A stretch of DNA of 64,000 nucleotides, taken from NCBI RefSeq assembly GCF_040529045.1, contig NZ_CP131914.1:4138501-4202500 (forward strand). The letters run 5' to 3'. The notes beneath the pieces were generated by a model that had not been told where the DNA came from, ran no database searches, and saw only the letters and a program-made list of their open reading frames with translations. The stretch comes from Xanthomonas indica. Lineage in GTDB: Bacteria; Pseudomonadota; Gammaproteobacteria; Xanthomonadales; Xanthomonadaceae. This document shows, in pieces, positions 31,315 to 54,487 of the stretch (positions within the stretch are counted from its first letter, which is position 1; each line of letters starts with the position of its first letter). The position numbers were made by a program, and so were the translations under genes.

Positions 31315-33048
31315 TCAGTCCTTCGTCACCCGATTGATCTCCGCCAGACTGGTGATGCCGTTGCGGGCCTTGAGCAGGGCCGACTGGCGCAGGTCCTTGA
31401 CCCCGATCTTCTGCGCGGCGCTGGCGATGTCCATCGCGTTGCCGCCCTGCAGCACGATCGCCGCGATCTCGTCGTTCATCGGCATCACCTGGTAGATGCC
31501 GGTGCGGCCCTTGTAGCCCTCGGTACAGTCGTCGCAGCCGACCGCTTCGTACAACTGGATGCCGGCGGCGACCTCCGCCTCGGTGAAGCCCTCGGCCAGC
31601 AGGGCCTTCTCCGGCAACTGGACCGGGCGCTTGCAGTTGTTGCACAGGCGCCGCGCCAGGCGCTGGGCGATGACCAGGGTCACCGAACTGGTGATGTTGT
31701 AGGGCGCGATGCCCATGTTCATCAGGCGCGCGATGGTCTGCGGCGCGTCGTTGGTGTGCAGGGTGGACAACACCATGTGGCCGGTCTGCGCGGCCTTGAT
31801 CGCGATCTCGGCGGTCTCCAGGTCGCGGATTTCGCCGACCATGATGATGTCCGGGTCCTGGCGCAGGAACGACCGCAGCGCCGCGGCGAAGGTCATGCCG
31901 CGCTTGTTGTTCTGCTGCACCTGGTTGACCCCGGGCAGGCGGATTTCGACCGGATCCTCGGCGGTGGAGATGTTGCGGGTGTCGTCGTTGAGGATGCCCA
32001 GCGCGGTGTACAGCGACACCGTCTTGCCGGAGCCGGTGGGGCCGGTGACCAGGACCATGCCGTACGGTTTGTGGATCGCATCCAGGAACAGCTTCTGCTG
32101 CTCCGGCTCGTAGCCGAGCTTGTCGATGCCCAGCTTGGCCGCGCTGCCGTCGAGGATACGCAGCACGATCTTCTCGCCGAACAGCGTCGGCAGCGTGCTG
32201 ACGCGGAAGTCGATCTGCTTGTTCTTGGACAGGTTGAGCTTGATGCGGCCGTCCTGCGGGACCCGCTTCTCGGCGATGTCCAGCTGCGCCATCACCTTCA
32301 GGCGCGCGGCGATGCGCTGGTTGAGCTTGACCGGCGCCTTGGCCACGCTCTTGAGCAGGCCGTCGATGCGCAGGCGCACCCGGTAATCGTCCTCGTAGGG
32401 CTCGAAGTGAATATCGGACGCGCCGCGGCGGATCGCATCGACCAGCACCTTGTTCACGAACTTGACGACCGGGGTGTCCTCGCCCTTGGCGTCGATGCCG
32501 GTGTCGCCGCTGCTGCCCATGTCCTCGTCGCCGCCGCCGACATCGAGGTTGTCCATCCCCTCGTCGTCGCCCAGCGCGTTGCCGAGCGAGTCGTTGCTGG
32601 CCTGCCACTGCTCCAGGGTCCGGCGGATCTGGTCCTCGTCGACCAGGATCGGCTCCACCGTCAGGTTGGTGTGGAACTTGATGTCGTCCAGCGCCCGGGT
32701 CTGGGTCGGGTTGCTGATGCCGACGAACAGGCGGCCGCCGCGCTTGAACAACGGCAGCACCTGGTACTTCTGCAGCAGTTCCTCGCTGACCAGCTTCATG
32801 GCGTTCTGGCTGGCGTCGAAAACCGAGACATCCATCAACGGCATGCCGAACTCCACCGCATTGGCGGCGGCCAACTGCGCGGCGGTGACCAGCTTCTTCT
32901 CGGAGAACCACTGCGGCAGCGGTACCTTGGCCTCGCCCGCCTGGGCCATCGCGGCCCGCGCCGCGGCTTCGTCCAGCGCACCGTCCTGCACGAGACGGCG
33001 GGCGATACCGGTGATGCCGACAAGGTTGGCCGATACAGCTGCGTTCAT
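31315..33048 (-). CDS. pilB: Type IV pilus extension ATPase PilB
   Basis: A 577-residue hexameric ATPase that powers pilin polymerisation at the inner membrane. The N-terminal T2SSE_N domain is followed by the ATPase core: GPTGSGKTVSLYTALG (Walker A), ISTAEDPVEIRLPGVNQVQ (Asp box), GEIRDLETAEIA (Walker B) and STLHTNDAP (His box). A tetracysteine zinc site is at CNNCKRP and CDDCTEGY. ATG 33048 is chosen because the upstream extension is not conserved. It is divergent from the glycosyltransferase operon (132-base gap) and separated from pilC by that accessory segment and the pilins. Confidence 0.95.
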   Translation of the reverse strand: MNAAVSANLVGITGIARRLVQDGALDEAAARAAMAQAGEAKVPLPQWFSEKKLVTAAQLAAANAVEFGMPLMDVSVFDASQNAMKLVSEELLQKYQVLPLFKRGGRLFVGISNPTQTRALDDIKFHTNLTVEPILVDEDQIRRTLEQWQASNDSLGNALGDDEGMDNLDVGGGDEDMGSSGDTGIDAKGEDTPVVKFVNKVLVDAIRRGASDIHFEPYEDDYRVRLRIDGLLKSVAKAPVKLNQRIAARLKVMAQLDIAEKRVPQDGRIKLNLSKNKQIDFRVSTLPTLFGEKIVLRILDGSAAKLGIDKLGYEPEQQKLFLDAIHKPYGMVLVTGPTGSGKTVSLYTALGILNDDTRNISTAEDPVEIRLPGVNQVQQNNKRGMTFAAALRSFLRQDPDIIMVGEIRDLETAEIAIKAAQTGHMVLSTLHTNDAPQTIARLMNMGIAPYNITSSVTLVIAQRLARRLCNNCKRPVQLPEKALLAEGFTEAEVAAGIQLYEAVGCDDCTEGYKGRTGIYQVMPMNDEIAAIVLQGGNAMDIASAAQKIGVKDLRQSALLKARNGITSLAEINRVTKD

Positions 33049-33180
33049 GTCCGAAGTCTCCGTATATAACGGCAAAGATACTGCATATCCGGCAAGATGC
33101 ATCTACCGCCACCGCTTCGGGTGACATGAATCCCGCGGCGACTAGGACTAACATAGGGCGTGGGGAAACGGGAACGATCA

Positions 33181-34038
33181 GTGGACAGAATCAGCATTAT
33201 CCTGCCGGCGAAGAACGAGGTCGCGGGCTTGGCGCGCACCCTGCCAAAGCTGCGCGACTGCCTGCCAGGGGCAGAGATCATCGTCGTCGATGACGGTTCC
33301 ACCGACGCAACTGCGCAGGTCGCTCGAGATCATGGGGTGCGTGTACTCGGCAGCCCCTATTCAATGGGCAATGGCGCCGCAATCAAACGTGGCGCTCGCG
33401 CAGCAAGCGGCGACATCCTGGTATTCATGGATGCGGACGGACAGCACGACCCTCAGGACATCCCAAAGCTCCTGGCGATGCTCGATGCGGGCTACGACAT
33501 GGTCGTTGGGGCACGTGACCGTAGCGGACAGGCCAGTATTCACCGCGGCTTCGCCAACCGTTTTTACAACTGGCTGGCGAGTCGCATGACAGGCTTCCAC
33601 GTCAAGGATCTCACCTCCGGCTTTCGCGCCGTCCGCGCGGAACGATTTCGAGAGTTCCTGCACCTCCTCCCCAATGGCTTCAGCTATCCCACCACAAGCA
33701 CCATGGCCTTCTTCCGAAGTGCCTATCCCGTTGCGTATGTTCCTATTCCGGTAGCAAAGCGCGTCGGAACCGCAAGCCATATCCGCCCACTGAAAGACGG
33801 CATCCGTTTTCTGCTCATCATTTTCAAGATCGCAACGCTGTACTCGCCGCTGAAATTGTTCGTTCCTGTCTCCATTGCGTTTTTCATCACAGGACTGGCC
33901 TACTACGGCTACACATTCGCGACGATGCACCGCTTCACCAATATGAGCACACTATTGTTCAGTGCCGCCGTGATCGTTTTTCTGATCGGCCTGATCTCAG
34001 AGCAAATTACCAACTTAACCTACCGCCGCGATCATTGA
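33181..34038 (+). CDS. GT2 glycosyltransferase, polyprenyl-phosphate-hexose synthase-like
   Basis: 285 residues. The N-terminal GT-A domain has ISIILPAKNEVAGL, EIIVVDDGSTDAT and the metal-binding FMDADGQHDPQDI. A C-terminal part has two hydrophobic helices (LKLFVPVSIAFFITGLAYYGY and the segment after it), as in GtrB/ArnC/dolichyl-phosphate-mannose-synthase relatives. Such enzymes move a sugar from a nucleotide to polyprenyl phosphate on the inner membrane. GTG 33181 has GGGAA seven bases upstream; GTG 33160 in frame is an alternative. It is the first gene of a four-gene plus-strand set that is noticeably A/T-richer than the flanking pil genes. A TAACAT at 33149-33154 could be its -10. Confidence 0.85.
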   Translation: MDRISIILPAKNEVAGLARTLPKLRDCLPGAEIIVVDDGSTDATAQVARDHGVRVLGSPYSMGNGAAIKRGARAASGDILVFMDADGQHDPQDIPKLLAMLDAGYDMVVGARDRSGQASIHRGFANRFYNWLASRMTGFHVKDLTSGFRAVRAERFREFLHLLPNGFSYPTTSTMAFFRSAYPVAYVPIPVAKRVGTASHIRPLKDGIRFLLIIFKIATLYSPLKLFVPVSIAFFITGLAYYGYTFATMHRFTNMSTLLFSAAVIVFLIGLISEQITNLTYRRDH

Positions 34039-34057
34039 TGCCCACAAAAAAGCAGCC

Positions 34058-34846
34058 ATGAGCTATTCGACCTCGCTTGGCATTTTCGCCCCGGAAGCGG
34101 GATGGACCCCACCCATCCGCTATTTGCTTCGGAGAGCGAGGGTCCTTGAGATCGCAAAGCACCTGCCGCGAGGAAACCTGCTCGAGGTGGGATGCGGGGC
34201 CGGCGCTCTGCTATGCGACTTCGACCGACTTGGGTTTCAGACGACTGGATTGGAGAATTCAGAATCAGCACTTGCGATGGCGAGAACCCTTGCCGAACTC
34301 GACCAAGGGCGACATACGATAGAAGAAGTCGCCAACGAGAACTGGAGCGAAAAATTCGTCGTCGTCTGCGCTTTCGACGTACTTGAACACATTGAGCACG
34401 ATGGTGCGGCCATAGAAGAATGGAAACGCTGGCTCGCACCTGGCGGCACCATGGTCTTGTCTGTACCAGCGCATCCACAGCGCTGGGGCGCCGGCGATGA
34501 ATGGGCAGGTCATTGGCGCAGGTACGATCGCGACGGCCTCATGCGACTGCTCGAAGCGCAGGACCTCGATTGCGTGCATTTCGAGTGCTACGGCTTCCCT
34601 GCTGCAAACCTGACTGAATGGGCTGGGGAGTTTAGGTATCGGAGAATGATCGAGGAGCGCGGCAATCTGTCAAAACTGGCAGCCACCCATGCCAGCGGAA
34701 TCGATCGGCGCGATTATTCACGCCTGGCTACGCTAATTGCGTCAGTGCCCGGCCGCCTCGGCTTGCGCGCAGCAGTGGCGATGCAGTCGCTTGCGCGTAA
34801 TACGGACTGGGGCAGCGGCTATCTGGTCGCCGCCAGGAAGCGATGA
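34058..34846 (+). CDS. SAM-dependent class I methyltransferase
   Basis: 262 residues with SAM motif I LLEVGCGAGALLCDF, an acidic post-I residue in GLENSESAL, motif II-like FDVLEHIEHD and LAPGGTMVLSVPAHP. This is the UbiG/methyltransf_11/23 type; many such enzymes in surface-glycan clusters methylate sugars or lipid-linked intermediates, but the target here is unknown. It lies 19 bases after the GT2 gene and overlaps the next gene by four bases (ATGA), so it belongs to the same operon. No signal or membrane segment is seen. Confidence 0.85.
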   Translation: MSYSTSLGIFAPEAGWTPPIRYLLRRARVLEIAKHLPRGNLLEVGCGAGALLCDFDRLGFQTTGLENSESALAMARTLAELDQGRHTIEEVANENWSEKFVVVCAFDVLEHIEHDGAAIEEWKRWLAPGGTMVLSVPAHPQRWGAGDEWAGHWRRYDRDGLMRLLEAQDLDCVHFECYGFPAANLTEWAGEFRYRRMIEERGNLSKLAATHASGIDRRDYSRLATLIASVPGRLGLRAAVAMQSLARNTDWGSGYLVAARKR

Positions 34847-35793
34847 AATCCCTATGGCGCTGGACATCGAGGCTGCTGGCGGTGGCGCTGGCACTGTATG
34901 TGCTGTGGTTTGCGACAGCAAATCTTGACATTCGGGAAATCGGCCAAGCCCTATCAAACCAGGAAGTCGTCAGTGGCGTCCTTGCCGCCACCATCTGCTA
35001 TTGCCTGATCTACCCACTGACAGGCTTTGCATGGAAGCAGTTACTGGCAAGACAAAGCCAAACATATCCAGCAGTTCTGCTCACCAGAATCATCGGCTTG
35101 ACGCAGCTGGCCAAGTACGTGCCCGGCAATATCGCTCAACACGCCTCGCGCGCCGTATTGGCCATGAGGGCAGGCGTGACCACCAAGGGCTATGTTGCAA
35201 GTGCCGGCCAAGAAGCACTTCTTACCGTGGCAGCGAGCCTGTGCGTGGGCAGTGCTGCGCTGGCGATATCGCCGAGCGGGGTGCAGGCACTGGACTCACA
35301 TGGCCATATCCGGACTCTCTACGCGCTGACATGTGCGGCCTTTCTAGGCGCAGCCCTGCTTTGTCTCGACCTTCCAGCATCATCGCTTGAGCGAAGCAAT
35401 CGGCTGATAATCAGAATGCTTGGAAGGATGGGAGGCCTCCCAGGGCCAACCGCTGCCTTGACCGCTCTGTCAGCCTACGCCGTCAACTTTCTTGCCGTCG
35501 GAATCGGAATATGGCTGTTGTCCCAGACTCTGGGAGCGGATGTTGACCTTGCCATGGCGACCGCAGCCTTCGCGCTTTCCTGGACCCTTGGTTTCCTTGC
35601 TCCCGGCGCGCCAGCAGGACTCGGCGCACGCGAAGGTATCATGCTGTTGATCCTGGAGAGCCAGCACAATCATGAAAAGATTCTTTTGCTTGTACTCCTG
35701 ACCAGGGTTGCCAGCATATTGGGAGACCTCCTTGTCTTCCTGCTATCCCTGGCCACACATTGTTCCGCCCGCAAGGAGAACCGCTTCCAGTGA
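34843..35793 (+). CDS. Multi-TM protein of the lysylphosphatidylglycerol synthase TM / UPF0104 family
   Basis: 316 residues with about seven or eight hydrophobic segments. The family pattern is visible in the LTQLAKYVPGNIAQHASRAVL region, the conserved Tyr/Lys-Val-Pro-Gly-Asn block of this superfamily, and in LGFLAPGAPAGLGAREGIML. Members are found in glycan and lipid clusters and have been proposed as flippases or lipid-modifying proteins; no soluble LPG synthase domain is attached here. The ATG overlaps the methyltransferase stop, and its own stop overlaps the GTG of the next glycosyltransferase gene, so coupling is tight. A role in moving or processing a lipid-linked sugar is inference from neighbours. 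Confidence 0.8.
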   Translation: MKSLWRWTSRLLAVALALYVLWFATANLDIREIGQALSNQEVVSGVLAATICYCLIYPLTGFAWKQLLARQSQTYPAVLLTRIIGLTQLAKYVPGNIAQHASRAVLAMRAGVTTKGYVASAGQEALLTVAASLCVGSAALAISPSGVQALDSHGHIRTLYALTCAAFLGAALLCLDLPASSLERSNRLIIRMLGRMGGLPGPTAALTALSAYAVNFLAVGIGIWLLSQTLGADVDLAMATAAFALSWTLGFLAPGAPAGLGAREGIMLLILESQHNHEKILLLVLLTRVASILGDLLVFLLSLATHCSARKENRFQ

Positions 35794-36995
35794 AATCTTC
35801 CGGCACCTCAAACGAAGGCGCCGCGTCATCTGGCACCGGCAATACTCGGCAGAGACTTGTTGTCGGCGGCGTCGCGCTTCGTGGCAGCGGCTATCCCAAT
35901 GCATGGAACACACTACGCATTCTTAGAAAAGCCGGCATAGACATCGTTGACTTATGCCATTGGCTCCCGGAAGACTTTCATCTGTGGAAACTGACGCGAC
36001 TTCCACCCTGGCGAGCAGCCATCGCCCTAGGTAGACTCGCGATTCTGAACGTGACATCGGCTATCAAGATCTTGCTGGGTACGCGGCGCAATGACCTGGT
36101 CTACATTCCCTATCCGGGAGCATTCCTACTATGGATGCTCTCATGGGTACCGAAGCGCCTGCGGCCGTCATGCCTATGTGATGCCTACATCACCATATGG
36201 GACACGCTTTACCAGGATCGCGGACTGGGCGGAAAAGCAGGAGGTCGGCTGTCGAACCTGGTGCTTCGGTTCGAATCACGCGCCCTGAGATGCGCCAACG
36301 GACTCATTGTTGACACCAACAAGAATGCCGACCATATCGCAGCGACGTTCGGCGTAGACCGCACACGCATCCATGCGCTCCCGCTCGCCATGGACGAGAT
36401 ATCCACGTCCAGCACCGTCGTCAGGCCACAGACAGCACCTCACGCTACCCGGGTCATCTTTTTCGGCACGTTCGTCCCGCTGCAGGGCACGACCAAGATC
36501 GCACAGACGATCGCCTTACTGCGCGACCGTAACGACATAGAATTCGTACTGATCGGGGACGGGCAAGCCGCATCCGAAGCACAACCCTATCTGATCCAAA
36601 ATCCAAACGTCACGTGGATACGCGAATGGCTGTCAACTGAAAAGCTGATGCGACTGATCGAGAATTCAGACATTTGTCTCGGCGTCTTTGGTGGACAGGG
36701 GAAGTCCGCCCGCGTACTCCCCTTTAAAATCTACATCGCGCTAGCCGCCGGCAAGCCCATTATCACGCAACGAGATCATGGCTTACCCGATTCCGCCCCC
36801 CCTATTCCCGCGCTTTTCACATCGGACACACCGGAAGAGATCGTCGCAGGCCTGAAAACGCTGGCCGCCGATGTGACACTGCGCTCTTCATTGGCGGACG
36901 CAGGCCGAATGTACTACCTAAAGCATCTCGGACCATCGCAAATCGCCCTGCGTTGGCAGGACTTGATGCAATCCCAGGCACACACCAACGTATAG
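35790..36995 (+). CDS. GT4-type glycosyltransferase
   Basis: 401 residues with a GT-B layout. The N-terminal half has VVGGVALRGSGYPNAWNTLR and DLVYIPYPGA. The C-terminal half has TRVIFFGTFVPLQGTTKIAQ, FVLIGDGQAA and the E-x7-E-like segment around ARVLPFKIYIALAAGKPIIT. This is typical of retaining GT4 enzymes acting on surface glycans; donor and acceptor are unknown. The GTG at 35790 is preceded by AAGGAG and overlaps the upstream stop (GTGA). It is last in the four-gene set and convergent with the GT-C gene across 49 bases. Confidence 0.82.
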   Translation: MKSSGTSNEGAASSGTGNTRQRLVVGGVALRGSGYPNAWNTLRILRKAGIDIVDLCHWLPEDFHLWKLTRLPPWRAAIALGRLAILNVTSAIKILLGTRRNDLVYIPYPGAFLLWMLSWVPKRLRPSCLCDAYITIWDTLYQDRGLGGKAGGRLSNLVLRFESRALRCANGLIVDTNKNADHIAATFGVDRTRIHALPLAMDEISTSSTVVRPQTAPHATRVIFFGTFVPLQGTTKIAQTIALLRDRNDIEFVLIGDGQAASEAQPYLIQNPNVTWIREWLSTEKLMRLIENSDICLGVFGGQGKSARVLPFKIYIALAAGKPIITQRDHGLPDSAPPIPALFTSDTPEEIVAGLKTLAADVTLRSSLADAGRMYYLKHLGPSQIALRWQDLMQSQAHTNV

Positions 36996-37044
36996 CAAAA
37001 GGCCGATTCTTTAGCCACGTTAACAGCCAGGTTATCGCCCGCCT

Positions 37045-38877
37045 TTACTGTGTGACCAGGGCATTTTCCCTGGCGATACATGGGGCTAGAAGTCTCGCCT
37101 CTTCGACACGTCCTTGCTCGACAAGCGATGCGATGAGATGCTCGTCGTAAGCAAGATCTTTTTTTATCCGAACAGCGGCGCAGTACTCTCTCGATGCAAG
37201 GCGGGGATCGTGCAGGACGCGACCCGCGTAATCGGCATACAACAAGTGAGCATCCAGAAGGCCTGGCTGCCTGCGCACATAAATCTCGCTTATCGTCTTC
37301 AAAAGTTGATCTGATACCGGTGTCCCATCCATGCGCTCACTATGCAATGCATAGAAGGCACTGAATTCCTGCGGCCCCAGTGGCCTTGTCTCGAATTTCT
37401 GCACAATCCTGGCTTGCCACTCTGGATTAACTGGTCTGCCAGCCTTCGCATTGATCAATATCATGGCCTGCTCAGGCAATGGTGAGGACCGAGGCAGGGC
37501 AGATGCTCTCGCCAGTTCCGCCATGGCCAACGTGTAGTTGACGGAATCGACTTCACCGCCAGAGCGCTCCATATAGATACTGGCCAGCTCATATGACGCA
37601 CGCGAGGAATTCTTGTTGTCGATCACCGCAGAGTTCGCAAAAAGCGCCGGATTTCCCCACACCGAGCTCCGCAAGAAGGTGGCAAACGCAAGTCCGACGA
37701 TGCACGCGCCAACAAGCACGACTGCGACAGTCTGCTTGCGGCTGCTGATCAGACAACGCACCAACTCTGCCGCCACCAACAATGGCCCAAGCAGTGCAAG
37801 ATAGTTTCGATGCTCAAACACGAGCTCCAACGCCAAAGGCGCGCTGGTTATGAGATGCGACGCGAAAAAAAAACCTACACCCAAACTCACCAACGGCATC
37901 TTTCGACGCGCCAGAACGCCGACCAAGACCACACCACCCAAGAACACCAACCCGATAAACGTCGTAGGAGGCTGAAAGATGCCGTGCGAAGGAGCAACGT
38001 CGTCGTGATAGAAAGTCAAGTTCCCGGGAGAAGGCCAGACCATCCAATAGATATATTCGGGAAGAACACGAAATTGCGTCATCACCCGTTCCCACATGGT
38101 GAAATCGCGCATCGCGAACTGCCCGGAAATGCGTGGCAACAGGAAACCAAAGAAAACCACAGCACCCACAGCGAAAATCGAACCATAGGCGCCCCTTATG
38201 ATCTTTCTCAGACGGTAATTCTGTGCATCAAACCGCATCAGAGCCAATTCGATGACAAAAGCGTAGACCGGCATCTGAGCGGCATTTTCTTTCGATAAAA
38301 TCCCAAACACAAGAAACACAGAACACAGCATAAACATAACACCGCCGCGCTCCCCTGCCACCTGGCGGGTGCGCGCTGAAACATATGCGATCAGAGATAA
38401 AAGAAGAAAGAGGTTCCCCAGCAACTCCATTCTTTGCACAACATAAAGAACCGCGGAGACCTGCAAGGGGTGCAAGCCCCAGGAAAACGCCACCAAAATA
38501 CTGGCGACCGCTTGATTCCGACTTGACTCGGTCGGCCACGCGAGCGCGACGAGGCGTCGAAGGAGCAATCCCACCAGCACGATATTGATAGCGTGAAGTA
38601 ATAGATTCCCTTCCTTGTAGGCACCGGGATCCATACCGTGCATCCAATAGCCGAGCGCAAGACTCAAGGTAGCGACGGGCCGCCCGATTGGGCCTCCATA
38701 GGCATGCGCAGCCTCCCACAATCCATGGAGCGTCACGGCCTTGAGCATGATGGATTTGTTTTCGACGACCGCCTGGTAATCGTCGAACAAGAACCCTCCC
38801 GACAGCCCTGGCAGAAACACAACACATGCCAAGATGGCGGCCAAGCTCAGCATGGACAAGAAGTACAGGCGCTTCAT
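37045..38877 (-). CDS. TMTC-like GT-C membrane glycosyltransferase with C-terminal repeat region
   Basis: 610 residues. About eleven hydrophobic segments cover residues 1-430, then comes a soluble C-terminal ~180 residues with helical-repeat character. LSGGFLFDDYQAVVEN (Asp32-Asp33) after TM1 is the catalytic DD motif of GT-C enzymes. RPVATLSLALGYWMHG, NLLLHAINIVL, LHPLQVSAVLYVVQRMELLG and LSKENAAQMPVYAFVIEL match the pattern of TMTC-type O-mannosyltransferases, which use polyprenyl-phosphate sugars. It is 31 bases downstream of the second pilin gene on the same strand, so pilin glycosylation is an attractive inference. ATG 38877 is chosen; an upstream extension would overlap the pilin. Confidence 0.72.
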   Translation of the reverse strand: MKRLYFLSMLSLAAILACVVFLPGLSGGFLFDDYQAVVENKSIMLKAVTLHGLWEAAHAYGGPIGRPVATLSLALGYWMHGMDPGAYKEGNLLLHAINIVLVGLLLRRLVALAWPTESSRNQAVASILVAFSWGLHPLQVSAVLYVVQRMELLGNLFLLLSLIAYVSARTRQVAGERGGVMFMLCSVFLVFGILSKENAAQMPVYAFVIELALMRFDAQNYRLRKIIRGAYGSIFAVGAVVFFGFLLPRISGQFAMRDFTMWERVMTQFRVLPEYIYWMVWPSPGNLTFYHDDVAPSHGIFQPPTTFIGLVFLGGVVLVGVLARRKMPLVSLGVGFFFASHLITSAPLALELVFEHRNYLALLGPLLVAAELVRCLISSRKQTVAVVLVGACIVGLAFATFLRSSVWGNPALFANSAVIDNKNSSRASYELASIYMERSGGEVDSVNYTLAMAELARASALPRSSPLPEQAMILINAKAGRPVNPEWQARIVQKFETRPLGPQEFSAFYALHSERMDGTPVSDQLLKTISEIYVRRQPGLLDAHLLYADYAGRVLHDPRLASREYCAAVRIKKDLAYDEHLIASLVEQGRVEEARLLAPCIARENALVTQ

Positions 38878-38908
38878 CGTTTGGCCCGAATCAAAATAGA
38901 GAATCCAC

Positions 38909-39334
38909 TCAGTCAGCCTTGCATTCCACCGGAATATATTTCTGCCGCGCCGAACTACTGCATATCCACCCGCCTTCCGCCGAGCGGTCCCAACGCATTT
39001 CCTTATCCTGAATATCAGACCCGCCATTCATCTTGCACACGATAGCGCGCGTTATCCCGTCTGCAGGTGCACTTACCGTGATCGCGTTGCAGCGCACGCT
39101 GCTCGCCTGAAGACTCACCCCCTGGGCGCTATATTCATCCACTCCAGCGCCCCTCGCGACCAGCGATTCGTACGCAGCTTTCCCAATTGTAATTTCGCGC
39201 AAAGCGGCAACCGCCTGTGCTTTTGCCAAATAGTCCATGTAAATAGGCAACGCGATGGCGGACAGGACTGCAATGATGGCCACAACAACCATCAACTCTA
39301 TCAATGTAAAACCATGCACCGTACGTCGCTGCAT
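38909..39334 (-). CDS. Second type IV pilin (PilA paralogue)
   Basis: 141 residues. A short leader ending Gly, then FTLIELMVVVAIIAVLSAIALP: the prepilin peptidase site and hydrophobic spine with the conserved Glu5. Four cysteines follow. The globular part differs strongly from the neighbouring PilA, and base composition is A/T-richer. The ATG at 39334 is preceded by a G-rich AGAG site; the upstream ATG at 39355 has none. It lies 107 bases after pilA but beyond that gene's terminator, and no good promoter of its own was found. It could be an alternative major pilin or a minor pilin. Confidence 0.85.
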   Translation of the reverse strand: MQRRTVHGFTLIELMVVVAIIAVLSAIALPIYMDYLAKAQAVAALREITIGKAAYESLVARGAGVDEYSAQGVSLQASSVRCNAITVSAPADGITRAIVCKMNGGSDIQDKEMRWDRSAEGGWICSSSARQKYIPVECKAD

Positions 39335-39391
39335 ACTCTCCCCCAGTACGCTCATAGGTGGCCGTCACCAGTCATCACTAGAACCGCAGCG

Positions 39392-39424
39392 AAAAAAAAA
39401 GCCCCGATGTCCGGGGCTTTTTTT
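39392..39424. terminator. Bidirectional rho-independent terminator after pilA
   Basis: GCCCCG / CGGGGC stem (39401-39406 and 39412-39417) with a 5-base loop, flanked by nine As and seven Ts. It is strong in both orientations and would cap the abundant pilA message. Confidence 0.92.
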
Positions 39425-39440
39425 GTACAGCAGACGCGAA

Positions 39441-39833
39441 TCAGCTGCAGCCGGTCGGCTTGTACTTGGCGTCGACCGACGAGCTGCAAGCCCAGGTACC
39501 GGTGCTGGCAGTACGGGTCAGAGTAACGTTCTTGCCAGCGATCTTGGCCGCATTGCCCTTCAGAGTACAGGCAATCGTGGTATCGGTCACAGCGATGCTG
39601 CAACGGGTCGTGCTCGAGGCCAAACCGATCTGAGCCGGCGTGCTGAGGGTGCTGCCCTCGTTCTTCTTCACCTCGAACTGGGTCTTGCCCGGGGTGATTT
39701 CCGCCAGACCGGCGGTGGCCTGCGACTTGGCGACATAGTCCTGATACATCGGCAGCGCGATGGCGGCCAGGATGGCGATGATCGCGACCACGATCATCAG
39801 TTCGATCAGGGTAAAGCCCTGCTGCTTCTTCAT
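39441..39833 (-). CDS. pilA: Major type IV pilin PilA
   Basis: 130 residues starting [20 protein letters not shown]: six-residue leader, Gly-Phe cleavage site and Glu5, then a compact globular domain with four cysteines ending [19 protein letters not shown]. Prepilin is cut and N-methylated by PilD (encoded nearby) and polymerised by PilB/PilC. It is divergent from pilC. A -24/-12 site about 110 bases upstream and the PilS/PilR genes in the window indicate sigma-54 control. A strong terminator follows. Confidence 0.95.
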
Positions 39834-40197
39834 TGTGAACCCCTAGAGATGGAATGAGGTGGTGGTAGGCACTCGCCCGCGGATCCTACTCCCCGAGCGC
39901 CGCGGCGAAGCGCCACGTGCGAGGTGATAGAAGCAGACGGCGTGCCAACTTCTGACGCCGCCCTGCTCCATGCCTCGTGGCGCATCATGCCCTAGCAGGC
40001 AAGGCAAGAGGCAGATAAATCGGAGATTTGCGACAGAATGGGCCATCTGTCGAATTTTGGCAAAAAGTGACGCTGGAGGTCACATCGATGGACAGGGAAC
40101 CTTGCCGACGCGGCCCCTACGGGTGTCAGACGCCCAGGAAACCGATACCATGCTTGGCATGTCCGCCCGGGGATGGCCGGACGGGGGAGACGACCTG
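39834..40197. other. Regulatory region between pilA and pilC
   Basis: 364 bases. It contains the sigma-54 site for pilA (39931-39949) and a near-miss on the plus strand at 40057-40073. No gene is supported; in-frame codons upstream of pilC lack a ribosome site and conserved sequence. Confidence 0.5.
39931..39949 (-). promoter_or_regulatory. Sigma-54 (-24/-12) promoter of pilA
   Basis: Minus strand reads TTGGCACGCCGTCTGCTT: GG at 39946-39945 and GC at 39934-39933 with exactly ten bases between, and TGGCAC matching the -24 consensus fully; -12 is CTGCT against TTGCW. Transcription should start near 39921, giving an untranslated leader of about 88 bases. PilR is the expected activator. Confidence 0.75.
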
Positions 40198-41457
40198 ATG
40201 TCCGCAACTCGCAGCGCAGTCAAGAAAGAGCCGGTCGCGCGCAATACCAGCCAACAGTTGCCCTTCGTCTGGGAGGGCACCGACAAGCGCGGCATCAAGA
40301 TGAAGGGCGAGCAGATCGCCAAGAACGCCAATCTGTTGCGCGCAGAACTGCGCCGCCAGGGCATCACCCCGTCGGTGGTCAAACCCAAACCCAAGCCGCT
40401 GTTCGGCGCGGCGGGCAAAAAGATCACCCCGAAGGACATCGCCTTCTTCAGTCGCCAAATGGCGACGATGATGAAGTCAGGCGTCCCGATCGTGGGTTCG
40501 CTGGAAATCATCGCCAGCGGGCACAAGAACCCGCGCATGAAGAAGATGGTCGACCAGATCCGCACCGACATCGAGGGCGGCTCCTCGCTCTACGAGGCGG
40601 TCAGCAAGCATCCGGTGCAGTTCGACGAGCTGTACCGCAATCTGGTCAAGGCCGGCGAAGGCGCCGGCGTGCTCGAGACGGTGCTGGAGACGGTTGCGAC
40701 TTATAAGGAGAACATCGAGGCACTGAAGGGCAAGATCAAGAAGGCCTTGTTCTACCCGGCCATGGTAATGGCGGTTGCCCTGATCGTTACCTCGATCCTG
40801 CTGGTCTGGGTCGTCCCGCAATTTGAAGACGTGTTCAAGGGCTTCGGCGCGGAACTGCCAGCCTTCACCCAGATGATCGTCGCGGCATCGCGCTTCATGG
40901 TGTCGTATTGGTGGATGCTGTTGCTCCTGCTGATCGGCACCATCGGCGGCTTCATCTTCGCCTACAAACGTTCGCCTGCGATGCAGCATGGGATGGACCG
41001 ATTGGTGCTCAAGGTGCCGATTATCGGCCAGATCATGCACAACAGCTCGGTGGCGCGTTTCTCGCGCACTCTTGCAGTCACCTTCCGCGCCGGCGTGCCG
41101 CTGGTGGAGGCACTGGACATCGTCGCTGGCGCCACCGGCAACAGCGTCTACGAAACTGCCGTGCTGCGCATGCGCGACGACGTGGCGGTCGGCTACCCAG
41201 TCAACGTGGCGATGAAGCAGACAAATCTGTTCCCGCACATGGTCATCCAGATGACCGCGATCGGCGAAGAAGCCGGTGCGCTGGATGCGATGCTGTTCAA
41301 GGTGGCCGAGTACTTCGAGCAGGAAGTGAACAATGCGGTCGATGCCTTGAGCAGCCTGATCGAGCCCTTGATCATGGTGTTCATCGGCACCATCGTCGGC
41401 GGCATGGTCATCGGCATGTACCTGCCGATCTTCAAGCTGGCCTCCGTCGTTGGATAA
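40198..41457 (+). CDS. pilC: Type IV pilus inner-membrane platform protein PilC
   Basis: 419 residues with two T2SSF domains (KDIAFFSRQMATMMKSGVPIVGSLEII and FSRTLAVTFRAGVPLVEALDIV) and three or four membrane helices (ALFYPAMVMAVALIVTSILLVW, WWMLLLLLIGTIGGFIFAY, PLIMVFIGTIVGGMVIGMYLPIF). It is the platform through which PilB drives pilus assembly. ATG 40198 has GGGGGAG eight bases upstream and gives the normal length. It is six bases upstream of pilD. Confidence 0.95.
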   Translation: MSATRSAVKKEPVARNTSQQLPFVWEGTDKRGIKMKGEQIAKNANLLRAELRRQGITPSVVKPKPKPLFGAAGKKITPKDIAFFSRQMATMMKSGVPIVGSLEIIASGHKNPRMKKMVDQIRTDIEGGSSLYEAVSKHPVQFDELYRNLVKAGEGAGVLETVLETVATYKENIEALKGKIKKALFYPAMVMAVALIVTSILLVWVVPQFEDVFKGFGAELPAFTQMIVAASRFMVSYWWMLLLLLIGTIGGFIFAYKRSPAMQHGMDRLVLKVPIIGQIMHNSSVARFSRTLAVTFRAGVPLVEALDIVAGATGNSVYETAVLRMRDDVAVGYPVNVAMKQTNLFPHMVIQMTAIGEEAGALDAMLFKVAEYFEQEVNNAVDALSSLIEPLIMVFIGTIVGGMVIGMYLPIFKLASVVG

Positions 41458-54413: not shown

Positions 54414-54487
54414 TGGAGCGGGCGATGGGAATCGAACCCACGTCAGTAGCTTGGGAAGCTACAGCTCTACCATTGAGCTACGCCCGC
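54414..54487 (-). tRNA. tRNA-Gly (anticodon CCC)
   Basis: The minus strand folds as a full cloverleaf: acceptor GCGGGCG / CGCCCGC, D arm TAGCTCAATGGTAGAGCT, anticodon stem GTAGC / GCTAC with loop TTCCCAA (anticodon CCC), T arm GTGGGTTCGATTCCCAT and an encoded TCCA end. Confidence 0.95.

What the first reader, a model, noticed from the sequence alone, without database searches (positions are those of the whole stretch)
33181..39334. Accessory cassette between pilB and pilA that looks like a lipid-linked sugar route to pilin (or surface) glycosylation
Seen: an A/T-richer segment splits the pil genes. It encodes a GT2 with two C-terminal helices (polyprenyl-phosphate-hexose synthase type), a SAM methyltransferase, a multi-TM UPF0104/LPG-synthase-like protein and a GT4 enzyme with coupled ATGA/GTGA overlaps. 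Facing them are a TMTC-like GT-C enzyme and a second pilin. Known: GT-C enzymes of PMT/TMTC type use polyprenyl-phosphate sugars made by DPM-like GT2 enzymes. Inference: together these form a donor-synthesis, processing and transfer system whose acceptor is a pilin. Such a TMTC-type route for pilins is not one I know as described; the known pilin systems are PilO/TfpO, PglL and TfpW.
Basis: partly seen in the sequence, partly recalled or inferred. Interest (0 to 1): 0.72.

Follow-up and report, generated by a model that had tools for sequence, protein, structure and literature searches.

The report
Swappable sugar-coating cassette for pili
Between the genes for the pilus motor and the pilus fibre, this plant-associated bacterium and many relatives carry an exchangeable set of genes that very probably builds a short sugar chain on a membrane lipid and attaches it to the pilus protein, which could change how viruses and hosts see the pilus.

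Summary
Between pilB and pilC lie two pilins, a GT-C enzyme, a GT4, a PF03706 membrane protein, a methyltransferase and a DPMS/AglJ/ArnC-type GT2. In the genus, GT-C and GT2 occur together in 9 of 20 genomes and are both absent from 11 of 20. Of 80 named GT-C relatives, 70 have a pilin ORF within 300 bp. Among 45 distinct cassettes, 30 hold PF03706, 12 a Wzx flippase, none both, 3 neither; of 71 mostly truncated loci none holds both. PF03706 cassettes carry one GT4 (28 of 30; 2 have none), Wzx cassettes two or three (12 of 12). Best reading: a modular pilin-glycosylation system in which GT2 charges polyprenyl phosphate, exchangeable enzymes extend the glycan, PF03706 or Wzx flips it, and a TMTC-like GT-C moves it to pilin. 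Acceptor, carrier and flippase activity are inferred, not shown. TfpW, the closest known pilin GT-C enzyme, could not be compared because no sequence was obtained.

The parts
31315..33102 (-). pilB, pilus assembly ATPase; fixed left border of the cassette
   Evidence: TIGR02538 E 1.9e-264; 91-98% identical in the 19 other genus loci
33181..34038 (+). GT2, predicted polyprenyl-phosphate hexose synthase, two C-terminal TM helices
   Evidence: PF00535 1.2e-32; NCBIfam best AglJ 3.9e-35, below cut-off; PDB DPMS 5mlz 1.8e-17, ArnC 9bhc 3.2e-17, GtrB 5ekp 1.1e-9; orthologue in exactly the GT-C-bearing genus genomes
34058..34846 (+). SAM methyltransferase, predicted glycan methylation
   Evidence: PF13489 2.1e-17
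34843..35793 (+). PF03706 membrane protein, predicted flippase of the lipid-linked glycan
   Evidence: PF03706 5e-17; MprF model NF033480 9.7e-9 over model residues 5-297, below cut-off; replaced by Wzx in other cassettes
35790..36995 (+). GT4 glycosyltransferase, predicted to add the second sugar; GTGA overlap with the gene before
   Evidence: PF13692 2.2e-8; junction read
37045..38877 (-). GT-C glycosyltransferase with C-terminal helical-repeat (TPR-like) region, predicted pilin glycan transferase (TMTC-like)
   Evidence: model pLDDT 93.4, pTM 0.91; best folds PglB/STT3/AftB, weak; D32 D33 R66 K196 E197 E355 H356 R357 N358 invariant in 46 of 46; family in 97 of 198 sampled family genomes
38909..39334 (-). 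second type IV pilin, possible acceptor; alternative start at 39355
   Evidence: PF00114 3.1e-15
39394..39424 (-). terminator-like hairpin with T-run after pilA, likely attenuating pilin 2 and GT-C expression
   Evidence: -19.1 kcal/mol, z -4.96; not listed by the pattern scan
39441..39833 (-). pilA, major type IV pilin, predicted acceptor
   Evidence: PF00114 7e-23
39970..41457 (+). pilC ORF (true start probably further in); fixed right border
   Evidence: PF00482 1.4e-65; present in 20 of 20 genus genomes

Best explanation
A modular pilin-glycosylation locus. The GT2 (DPMS/ArnC/AglJ type) charges polyprenyl monophosphate with the first sugar. Exchangeable cytoplasmic enzymes extend and decorate it; here one GT4 and one methyltransferase, giving a methylated disaccharide. 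The PF03706 protein flips the lipid-linked glycan to the periplasm. The TMTC-like GT-C enzyme then transfers it to a hydroxyl residue of PilA and/or the second pilin; a role of its TPR-like tail in choosing the acceptor is speculation. GT2, GT-C and the pilins form the constant frame. The middle genes are swapped between strains and set the glycan, with PF03706 paired with one GT4 and Wzx paired with two or three. Shown: gene content, linkage, co-occurrence, exclusivity and GT counts. Inferred: lipid carrier, flippase role, glycan length, en-bloc transfer and pilin as acceptor.
For: In the genus, GT-C is in 9 of 20 genomes, and a GT2 orthologue of 87-100% identity is in exactly those 9, beside pilB; the other 11 have only GT2s of 27-36% identity. 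The chance of such a match is 6e-6 if kinship is ignored. A same-species genome (G058) has pilB 98% and pilR 99% identical but other pilins and no cassette. A pilin ORF (motif scan) lies within 300 bp of the GT-C in 70 of 80 named loci; 8 of 80 show no pilin ORF, 6 of those with less than 1.6 kb of contig before the GT-C gene. GT-C and GT2 are adjacent in Pseudomonas toyotomiensis, P. chengduensis and Roseateles. Flippase classes: 30 PF03706, 12 Wzx, 0 both, 3 neither of 45 (Fisher 1.6e-8, kinship ignored); mostly truncated loci 10, 21, 0 both, 40 neither of 71 (p 0.028). GT4 count is 1 in 28 and 0 in 2 of 30 PF03706 cassettes, against 2-3 in 12 of 12 Wzx cassettes. On the GT2 tree the flippase type changes at least 9 times and the GT class also 9 times. 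GT-C model and motifs.
Against: No biochemical evidence exists for any step. No Foldseek match reaches E 0.001; the GT-C hits have E 0.007-0.12 and TM-scores of 0.33-0.40, and an unrelated pyrophosphatase ranks among them at E 0.036, though with probability 0.35. The window GT-C itself has no Pfam TPR hit; only some family members do, weakly. Kinship inflates the p-values: only 2 independent flippase-differing pairs lie on well-supported branches. Three of 45 cassettes show neither flippase. Ser/Thr content of pilins shows no clear difference by eye between GT-C-bearing and GT-C-lacking genomes (which printed no pilin of L031). Monotopic phosphoglycosyl transferases were not scanned for exhaustively, so an undecaprenyl-diphosphate carrier is not excluded. 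GT4s and flippases were counted with profiles built here, not with Pfam on every gene.
Confidence: 0.62

Rival explanations
1. Three-component monosaccharide system: GT2 makes polyprenyl-P-hexose, PF03706 or Wzx flips it, and the GT-C enzyme adds a single sugar to pilin; GT4s and methyltransferases act on another glycan.
For: Minimal loci have GT-C and GT2 adjacent with no gene called between them (e.g. L112, L114, L142). Three-component systems with polyprenyl-P donors and GT-C enzymes are established for LPS side chains (PMC11127046, abstract and outline).
Against: GT4 number tracks flippase type without overlap in 42 cassettes, as expected if the GT4 product is what gets flipped. The two Pseudomonas minimal loci also carry a Wzx and methyltransferase matches beyond GT2.
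Confidence: 0.2
2. The GT-C enzyme is simply a TfpW-family pilin glycosyltransferase, so the locus is a TfpW system in another genus.
For: TfpW is a glycosyltransferase encoded with pilA that glycosylates pilin (passages of PMC11841053 and PMC12369383); the title of its 2008 paper, seen in a reference list, calls it a GT-C arabinosyltransferase. That it works with a lipid-linked sugar is recalled.
Against: The TfpW glycan genes lie in a separate island (PMC12369383), whereas here GT2 and glycan genes are linked. Only 6 of 398 sampled Pseudomonas genomes match the GT-C profile at E <= 1e-15, 3 of them strongly. No TfpW sequence was obtained, so direct comparison failed.
Confidence: 0.25
3. The cassette modifies LPS, exopolysaccharide or another surface glycan and is parked in the pil cluster by chance.
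For: GT4, Wzx, methyltransferases and aminotransferases are also typical of O-antigen loci (established knowledge).
Against: A pilin ORF within 300 bp in 70 of 80 named loci, among them Xanthomonas, Lysobacter, Arenimonas, Dyella, Stenotrophomonas, Pseudomonas and Roseateles, and replacement together with the pilins between fixed pilC and pilB.
Confidence: 0.08

Closest known systems
TfpW pilin arabinosyltransferase of Pseudomonas paraeruginosa (group IV pilins)
   Same: GT-C enzyme encoded with the pilin gene; glycosylates pilin; allelic pilin cassettes exchanged between strains (passages)
   Different: D-Araf genes are in a separate island; no linked GT2 or flippase reported in the passages read; sequence relation untested here
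TfpO/PilO, PglL and TfpM O-oligosaccharyltransferases
   Same: TfpO and TfpM are encoded next to pilA and specific for pilin (TfpM recalled)
   Different: Wzy_C-type proteins (recalled); the window GT-C has no Wzy_C or PglL hit
TMTC1-4 O-mannosyltransferases (GT105; CAZy number recalled)
   Same: GT-C membrane part with DD in the first loop, RP, RxD/E, KE and E..R..Y motifs in the same order, then TPR (motifs from passages)
   Different: No DUF1736 hit; M5 and M6 motifs not recognised; bacterial, pilin-linked
Haloarchaeal polyprenyl-monophosphate glycosylation (AglJ, AglD; AglR, AglB and AglS recalled)
   Same: Closest NCBIfam model of GT2 is AglJ; AglD carries a PF03706 domain predicted as flippase (passages); GT-C transferase
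   Different: Bacterial; predicted acceptor is a type IV pilin; TMTC-like rather than STT3-type transferase
Three-component periplasmic glycosylation systems (GT136 systems; GtrA/GtrB/Gtr recalled)
   Same: Polyprenyl-P sugar synthase, flippase and GT-C transferase
   Different: Linked GT4s and methyltransferases imply an oligosaccharide; pilin acceptor; PF03706 as flippase

Membership tests
Type IV pilin locus (PilA) | Class III signal peptide and PF00114 pilin domain | tested here: met
   Both pilins hit PF00114 and PF07963
Polyprenyl-phosphate hexose synthase (DPMS/GtrB/ArnC type) | GT2 domain with DAD motif and C-terminal TM helices, homologous to solved DPMS/ArnC | tested here: met
   PF00535; MDADGQHDP and two hydrophobic segments in the translation; two segments by script in homologues; PDB hits 5mlz, 9bhc, 5ekp. 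The DAD signature is recalled.
Polyprenyl-phosphate hexose synthase (DPMS/GtrB/ArnC type) | Product is polyprenyl-P-sugar | not testable with these tools
   Needs an enzyme assay
TMTC (GT105) | DUF1736 Pfam domain | tested here: not met
   Not among the families hit by any of 46 members at E <= 0.1; PMT_2 was hit by 2, PMT by 1 and GtrII-type Glucos_trans_II by 1
TMTC (GT105) | Motifs DD, ..RP, RxD/E, KE(T/Q), ERxxY in order | tested here: inconclusive
   D32-D33, R66-P67, R149-x-E151, K196-E197, E355-H-R357-N-Y359; the last motif is spaced differently; motifs DW and PxxP not recognised; motif list from passages of PMC7801869
TMTC (GT105) | C-terminal TPR domain | tested here: met
   PDB matches of profile A2 below E 0.001 are all TPR proteins, at its C-terminal part; helical tail in the model; TPR_19 weakly in 11 of 46 members, not in the window protein itself
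TfpW family | Sequence or structural homology to TfpW | not tested
   No TfpW sequence obtained
TfpO/PglL/TfpM | Wzy_C or PglL_A domain | tested here: not met
   No hit in Pfam or NCBIfam
PF03706 / MprF flippase domain | Pfam domain PF03706 | tested here: met
   Window 5e-17; 13 of 16 cassette members at E <= 0.01
PF03706 / MprF flippase domain | Lipid translocation | not testable with these tools
   Supported only by mutual exclusion with Wzx
Three-component system | Polyprenyl-P sugar synthase, flippase and GT-C transferase encoded together | tested here: met
   All three predicted kinds of protein in the interval
Three-component system | Single sugar transferred | not testable with these tools
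   Linked GT4 argues against it; needs mass spectrometry

The most novel reading that the evidence does not exclude
A bacterial counterpart of the haloarchaeal route: oligosaccharides are built on polyprenyl monophosphate (not diphosphate), flipped by either a PF03706 protein (short, two-sugar glycans) or a Wzx protein (three- to four-sugar glycans), and moved en bloc to type IV pilin by a TMTC-like GT-C oligosaccharyltransferase. PF03706 would be a new kind of lipid-linked-oligosaccharide flippase matched to glycan length, and the glycan module would be swapped as one unit within a fixed GT2/GT-C/pilin frame.
Probability: 0.42. Interest if true: 0.82.

Novelty: new variant of a known kind. 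Interest (0 to 1): 0.7.

Why it matters
I saw no description of pilin glycosylation in Xanthomonadaceae in the listings of my searches of an open-access library (and the 10 of 988 papers listed); I opened only a few of the listed papers, and subscription papers are mostly not held. Yet the GT-C enzyme is in 97 of 198 sampled genomes of the family. Pilus glycosylation protects Pseudomonas against pilus-binding phages (passages), so variable cassettes could set phage host range and recognition of the pilus by hosts. The strict either/or of PF03706 and Wzx, matched to GT4 number, makes the role of PF03706 (UPF0104) proteins directly testable. Archaeal genomics had predicted them to be flippases (PMC5898192, passages). 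A monophosphate-lipid O-oligosaccharide pathway would also be useful to glycoengineering.

Tried and rejected
TfpW comparison: I looked for P. paraeruginosa or P. syringae TfpW with the GT-C profile in 398 Pseudomonas genomes, with a DprE1-like marker (PF04030), and by reading the pilA side of pilB in 5 plus 40 genomes. Beside pilA I found membrane proteins in some of them: one Wzy_C/PglL-type by Pfam (L185), others not scanned, none matching the GT-C profile. No TfpW was recognised. Whether the sample held P. paraeruginosa or P. syringae is unknown. The 2008 TfpW paper is not held.

Pilin Ser/Thr content as a sign of glycosylation: no clear difference by eye between carriers and non-carriers.

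DUF1736/TMTC by Pfam: not found. The terminator pattern scan did not list the pilA hairpin that the fold shows.

A structure of the PF03706 protein was wanted, but the queue was full. The VIA library was not on the machine.

A significance claim from the tree was dropped: only 2 independent pairs lie on well-supported branches, and the 9 flippase changes are close to the 10.8 of shuffled labels, which shows scatter of the trait, not proof of linkage.

The first gene-caller count gave 0 GT4 in 4 of 30 PF03706 cassettes and up to 4 in Wzx ones; profile counting over all ORFs gave 0 in 2 of 30 and 2-3. I use the latter; the two classes do not overlap in either.

Rows dropped before counts: of 62 loci with GT-C and GT2, 6 duplicates were removed, leaving 56; 11 with less than 1500 bp between the genes were set aside, leaving 45. 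Of 72 further loci 1 duplicate was removed.
Full report
Observation. ORFs and Pfam give pilB on -, then GT2, methyltransferase, PF03706 membrane protein and GT4 on +, then on - the GT-C protein, a second pilin and pilA, then pilC on +, followed by a pilD-like ORF (the pilD name is mine, not scanned). The methyltransferase/PF03706 and PF03706/GT4 genes overlap as ATGA and GTGA. GC falls to 0.53-0.59 in the cassette. The GT2 probably starts at 33181, as homologues of 285 aa suggest. A strong hairpin with a T-run follows pilA. Such terminators after the major pilin gene, thought to limit accessory gene expression, are described in other species including X. campestris pv. vesicatoria (PMC11841053, passages).

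The GT-C protein. It has no Pfam or NCBIfam hit. An alignment of 46 relatives gave a confident AlphaFold model (mean pLDDT 93.4, pTM 0.91), with a membrane part of long helices and, from about residue 410, a helical-repeat tail. The family profile matches TPR-type proteins at the tail, and TPR models weakly hit some members, not the window protein. Foldseek's best matches are PglB, yeast and human STT3 and the mycobacterial arabinosyltransferase AftB, with probability near 1.0 but E 0.007-0.12 and TM-scores of 0.33-0.40; none of 631 matches reaches E 0.001, so this supports the GT-C fold only in outline. Conserved residues follow the TMTC motif order given in PMC7801869 (passages): DD, RP, RxE, KE and E-H-R-N-Y. 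D32, D33, R66, R149, K196, E197, E355, H356, R357 and N358 are invariant in 46 of 46. DUF1736 itself was not found, so I call it TMTC-like, not TMTC.

Distribution. In the sampled family, 97 of 198 genomes have the GT-C protein. In the genus it is 9 of 20, window included. The pilC gene is in 20 of 20. I read the pilC-pilB interval of the other 19. All 9 carriers have a GT2 of 86-100% identity beside pilB, and none of the 11 others does; their other GT2s are 27-36% identical. The chance of such a match is 6e-6 if kinship is ignored. pilB is 91-98% identical across the 19 loci, while GT-C identity in the 8 other carriers is 37-86% (39-87%). The window's PF03706 gene type is in only 3 of 20 genomes. 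A genome of the same species (G058) lacks the cassette and has other pilins between nearly identical flanks. This looks like the exchange of pilin cassettes described for P. paraeruginosa (PMC12369383, passages).

Relatives elsewhere. A scan of bacterial genomes kept 80 named loci of 579. A pilin ORF, by motif scan, is present in 72 of 80 and within 300 bp of the GT-C in 70; of the 8 without, 6 have less than 1.6 kb of contig before the GT-C gene. 57 of 80 have at least two pilin ORFs and 45 of 80 at least two GT-C ORFs. In Pseudomonas toyotomiensis, P. chengduensis and Roseateles, GT-C and GT2 (65-67% identical to the window's) are direct neighbours behind the pilins. In the class sample, 164 of 369 genomes match the profile at E <= 0.001, some of these weakly.

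The middle genes. I took 62 loci with both GT-C and GT2, 56 after removing duplicates, of which 45 have at least 1500 bp between the two. Among 20 representatives scanned, Pfam gave GT4, GT2, several methyltransferases, an FkbM methyltransferase, a DegT aminotransferase, Epimerase_2, asparagine synthase, a pyridine-nucleotide oxidoreductase, an APH-type kinase, a weak ATP-grasp hit, PF03706 and Wzx; 2 of the 20 had no hit. Membrane ORFs (200 aa or more, at least 4 hydrophobic segments by a simple script) in the 45 cassettes all fell to the two flippase profiles, except one in L072 that I did not identify; so no multi-pass phosphoglycosyl transferase was seen, while single-pass ones were not searched for exhaustively. 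Iterated profiles assigned a flippase type: 30 PF03706, 12 Wzx, 0 both, 3 neither (L072, L177, L178), Fisher p 1.6e-8 without regard to kinship. Pfam agrees for 13 of 16 PF03706-type members tested. PF01943 was hit by 12 of 16 rows scanned in A4, one of which is a GT2 fragment entered by mistake. In 71 further loci, most of whose cassettes were cut off, 10 had PF03706, 21 Wzx, 0 both and 40 neither (p 0.028). Counting GT4 genes with profiles over all ORFs, PF03706 cassettes have exactly one in 28 of 30 and none in 2; Wzx cassettes have two (4) or three (8) (Mann-Whitney p 2e-9, kinship ignored). On the GT2 tree the flippase type changes at least 9 times and the GT class also 9 times, but only 2 independent pairs lie on well-supported branches. 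The rule is therefore a strong pattern over many swaps, not yet a formal phylogenetic result.

Mechanism. GT2 is homologous to DPMS, ArnC and GtrB, which make polyprenyl-phosphate sugars, and its best NCBIfam model is the archaeal AglJ, below cut-off. GT4s and methyltransferases use cytoplasmic nucleotide sugars and SAM (established knowledge), so they should act before flipping. PF03706 is related to the flippase half of MprF and was predicted to be a flippase in archaeal glycosylation (PMC5898192, passages). Its replacement by Wzx here, without exception in the cassettes counted, is independent evidence. The GT-C enzyme, with pilins at its side, is the transferase. Predicted products: a methylated disaccharide in the window, and three or four sugars in Wzx cassettes. 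The acceptor, carrier and flipping are inferred.

Relation to known systems. TfpW is a pilin glycosyltransferase encoded with pilA, with its sugar genes in a separate island (PMC11841053 and PMC12369383, passages). Whether this family is homologous to TfpW in the strict sense could not be tested. TfpO, PglL and TfpM are Wzy_C-type (recalled) and different. The three-component systems (PMC11127046, abstract and outline) share the logic for single sugars. A comparative study of X. translucens noted strong PilA divergence; the 12 of 14 passages shown did not discuss a glycosylation cassette (PMC5217246). My searches of the open library listed no paper that describes this locus by title or abstract (in one search only 10 of 988 papers were listed); of those listed I opened passages or outlines of PMC11841053, PMC5217246, PMC7801869 and PMC11127046, and subscription papers are mostly not held.

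Verdict. The finding is real and its interpretation broadly right. I correct the role of the PF03706 protein to probable flippase, extend the locus to a widespread modular family, and add a testable rule linking flippase type to glycan length.

Noticed in passing
L172:4947-6596 (-), L173:6045-7691 (+), L174:6416-8062 (+): Three Pseudomonas genomes carry, near pilB, a multi-TM protein of about 548 aa, with a TPR tail in the two scanned (L172, L173), weakly matching the GT-C profile (E 3e-16 to 4e-19), with another membrane protein beside it (a Wzy_C ligase in L173): possibly another pilin-modification pair.
   Followed up: partly
L116, L119-L122, L127, L137-L141 and others: Dyella, Rhodanobacter and relatives, and some Lysobacter and Pseudoxanthomonas, carry two GT-C paralogues in tandem near the pilins (45 of 80 named loci have two or more GT-C ORFs); they may modify two pilins or two sites.
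   Followed up: no
L109: A contig labelled Rhizobium MAG carries a Xanthomonadaceae-like pilin, GT-C, GT2 and pilB cluster; probably a mis-binned contig.
   Followed up: no
window 38909-39833 and L031-L049: All 9 GT-C-bearing genus genomes show two tandem pilins; of the 11 without GT-C, 9 show one and 2 (L031, L047) show two.
   Followed up: partly
L072, L177, L178: Three cassettes with GT-C and GT2 contain neither PF03706 nor Wzx between the two genes; gene content is unresolved and may hold another flippase.
   Followed up: partly
window 54414-54487: The only tRNA gene found in the window, tRNA-Gly (CCC), lies about 13 kb from pilC.
   Followed up: no
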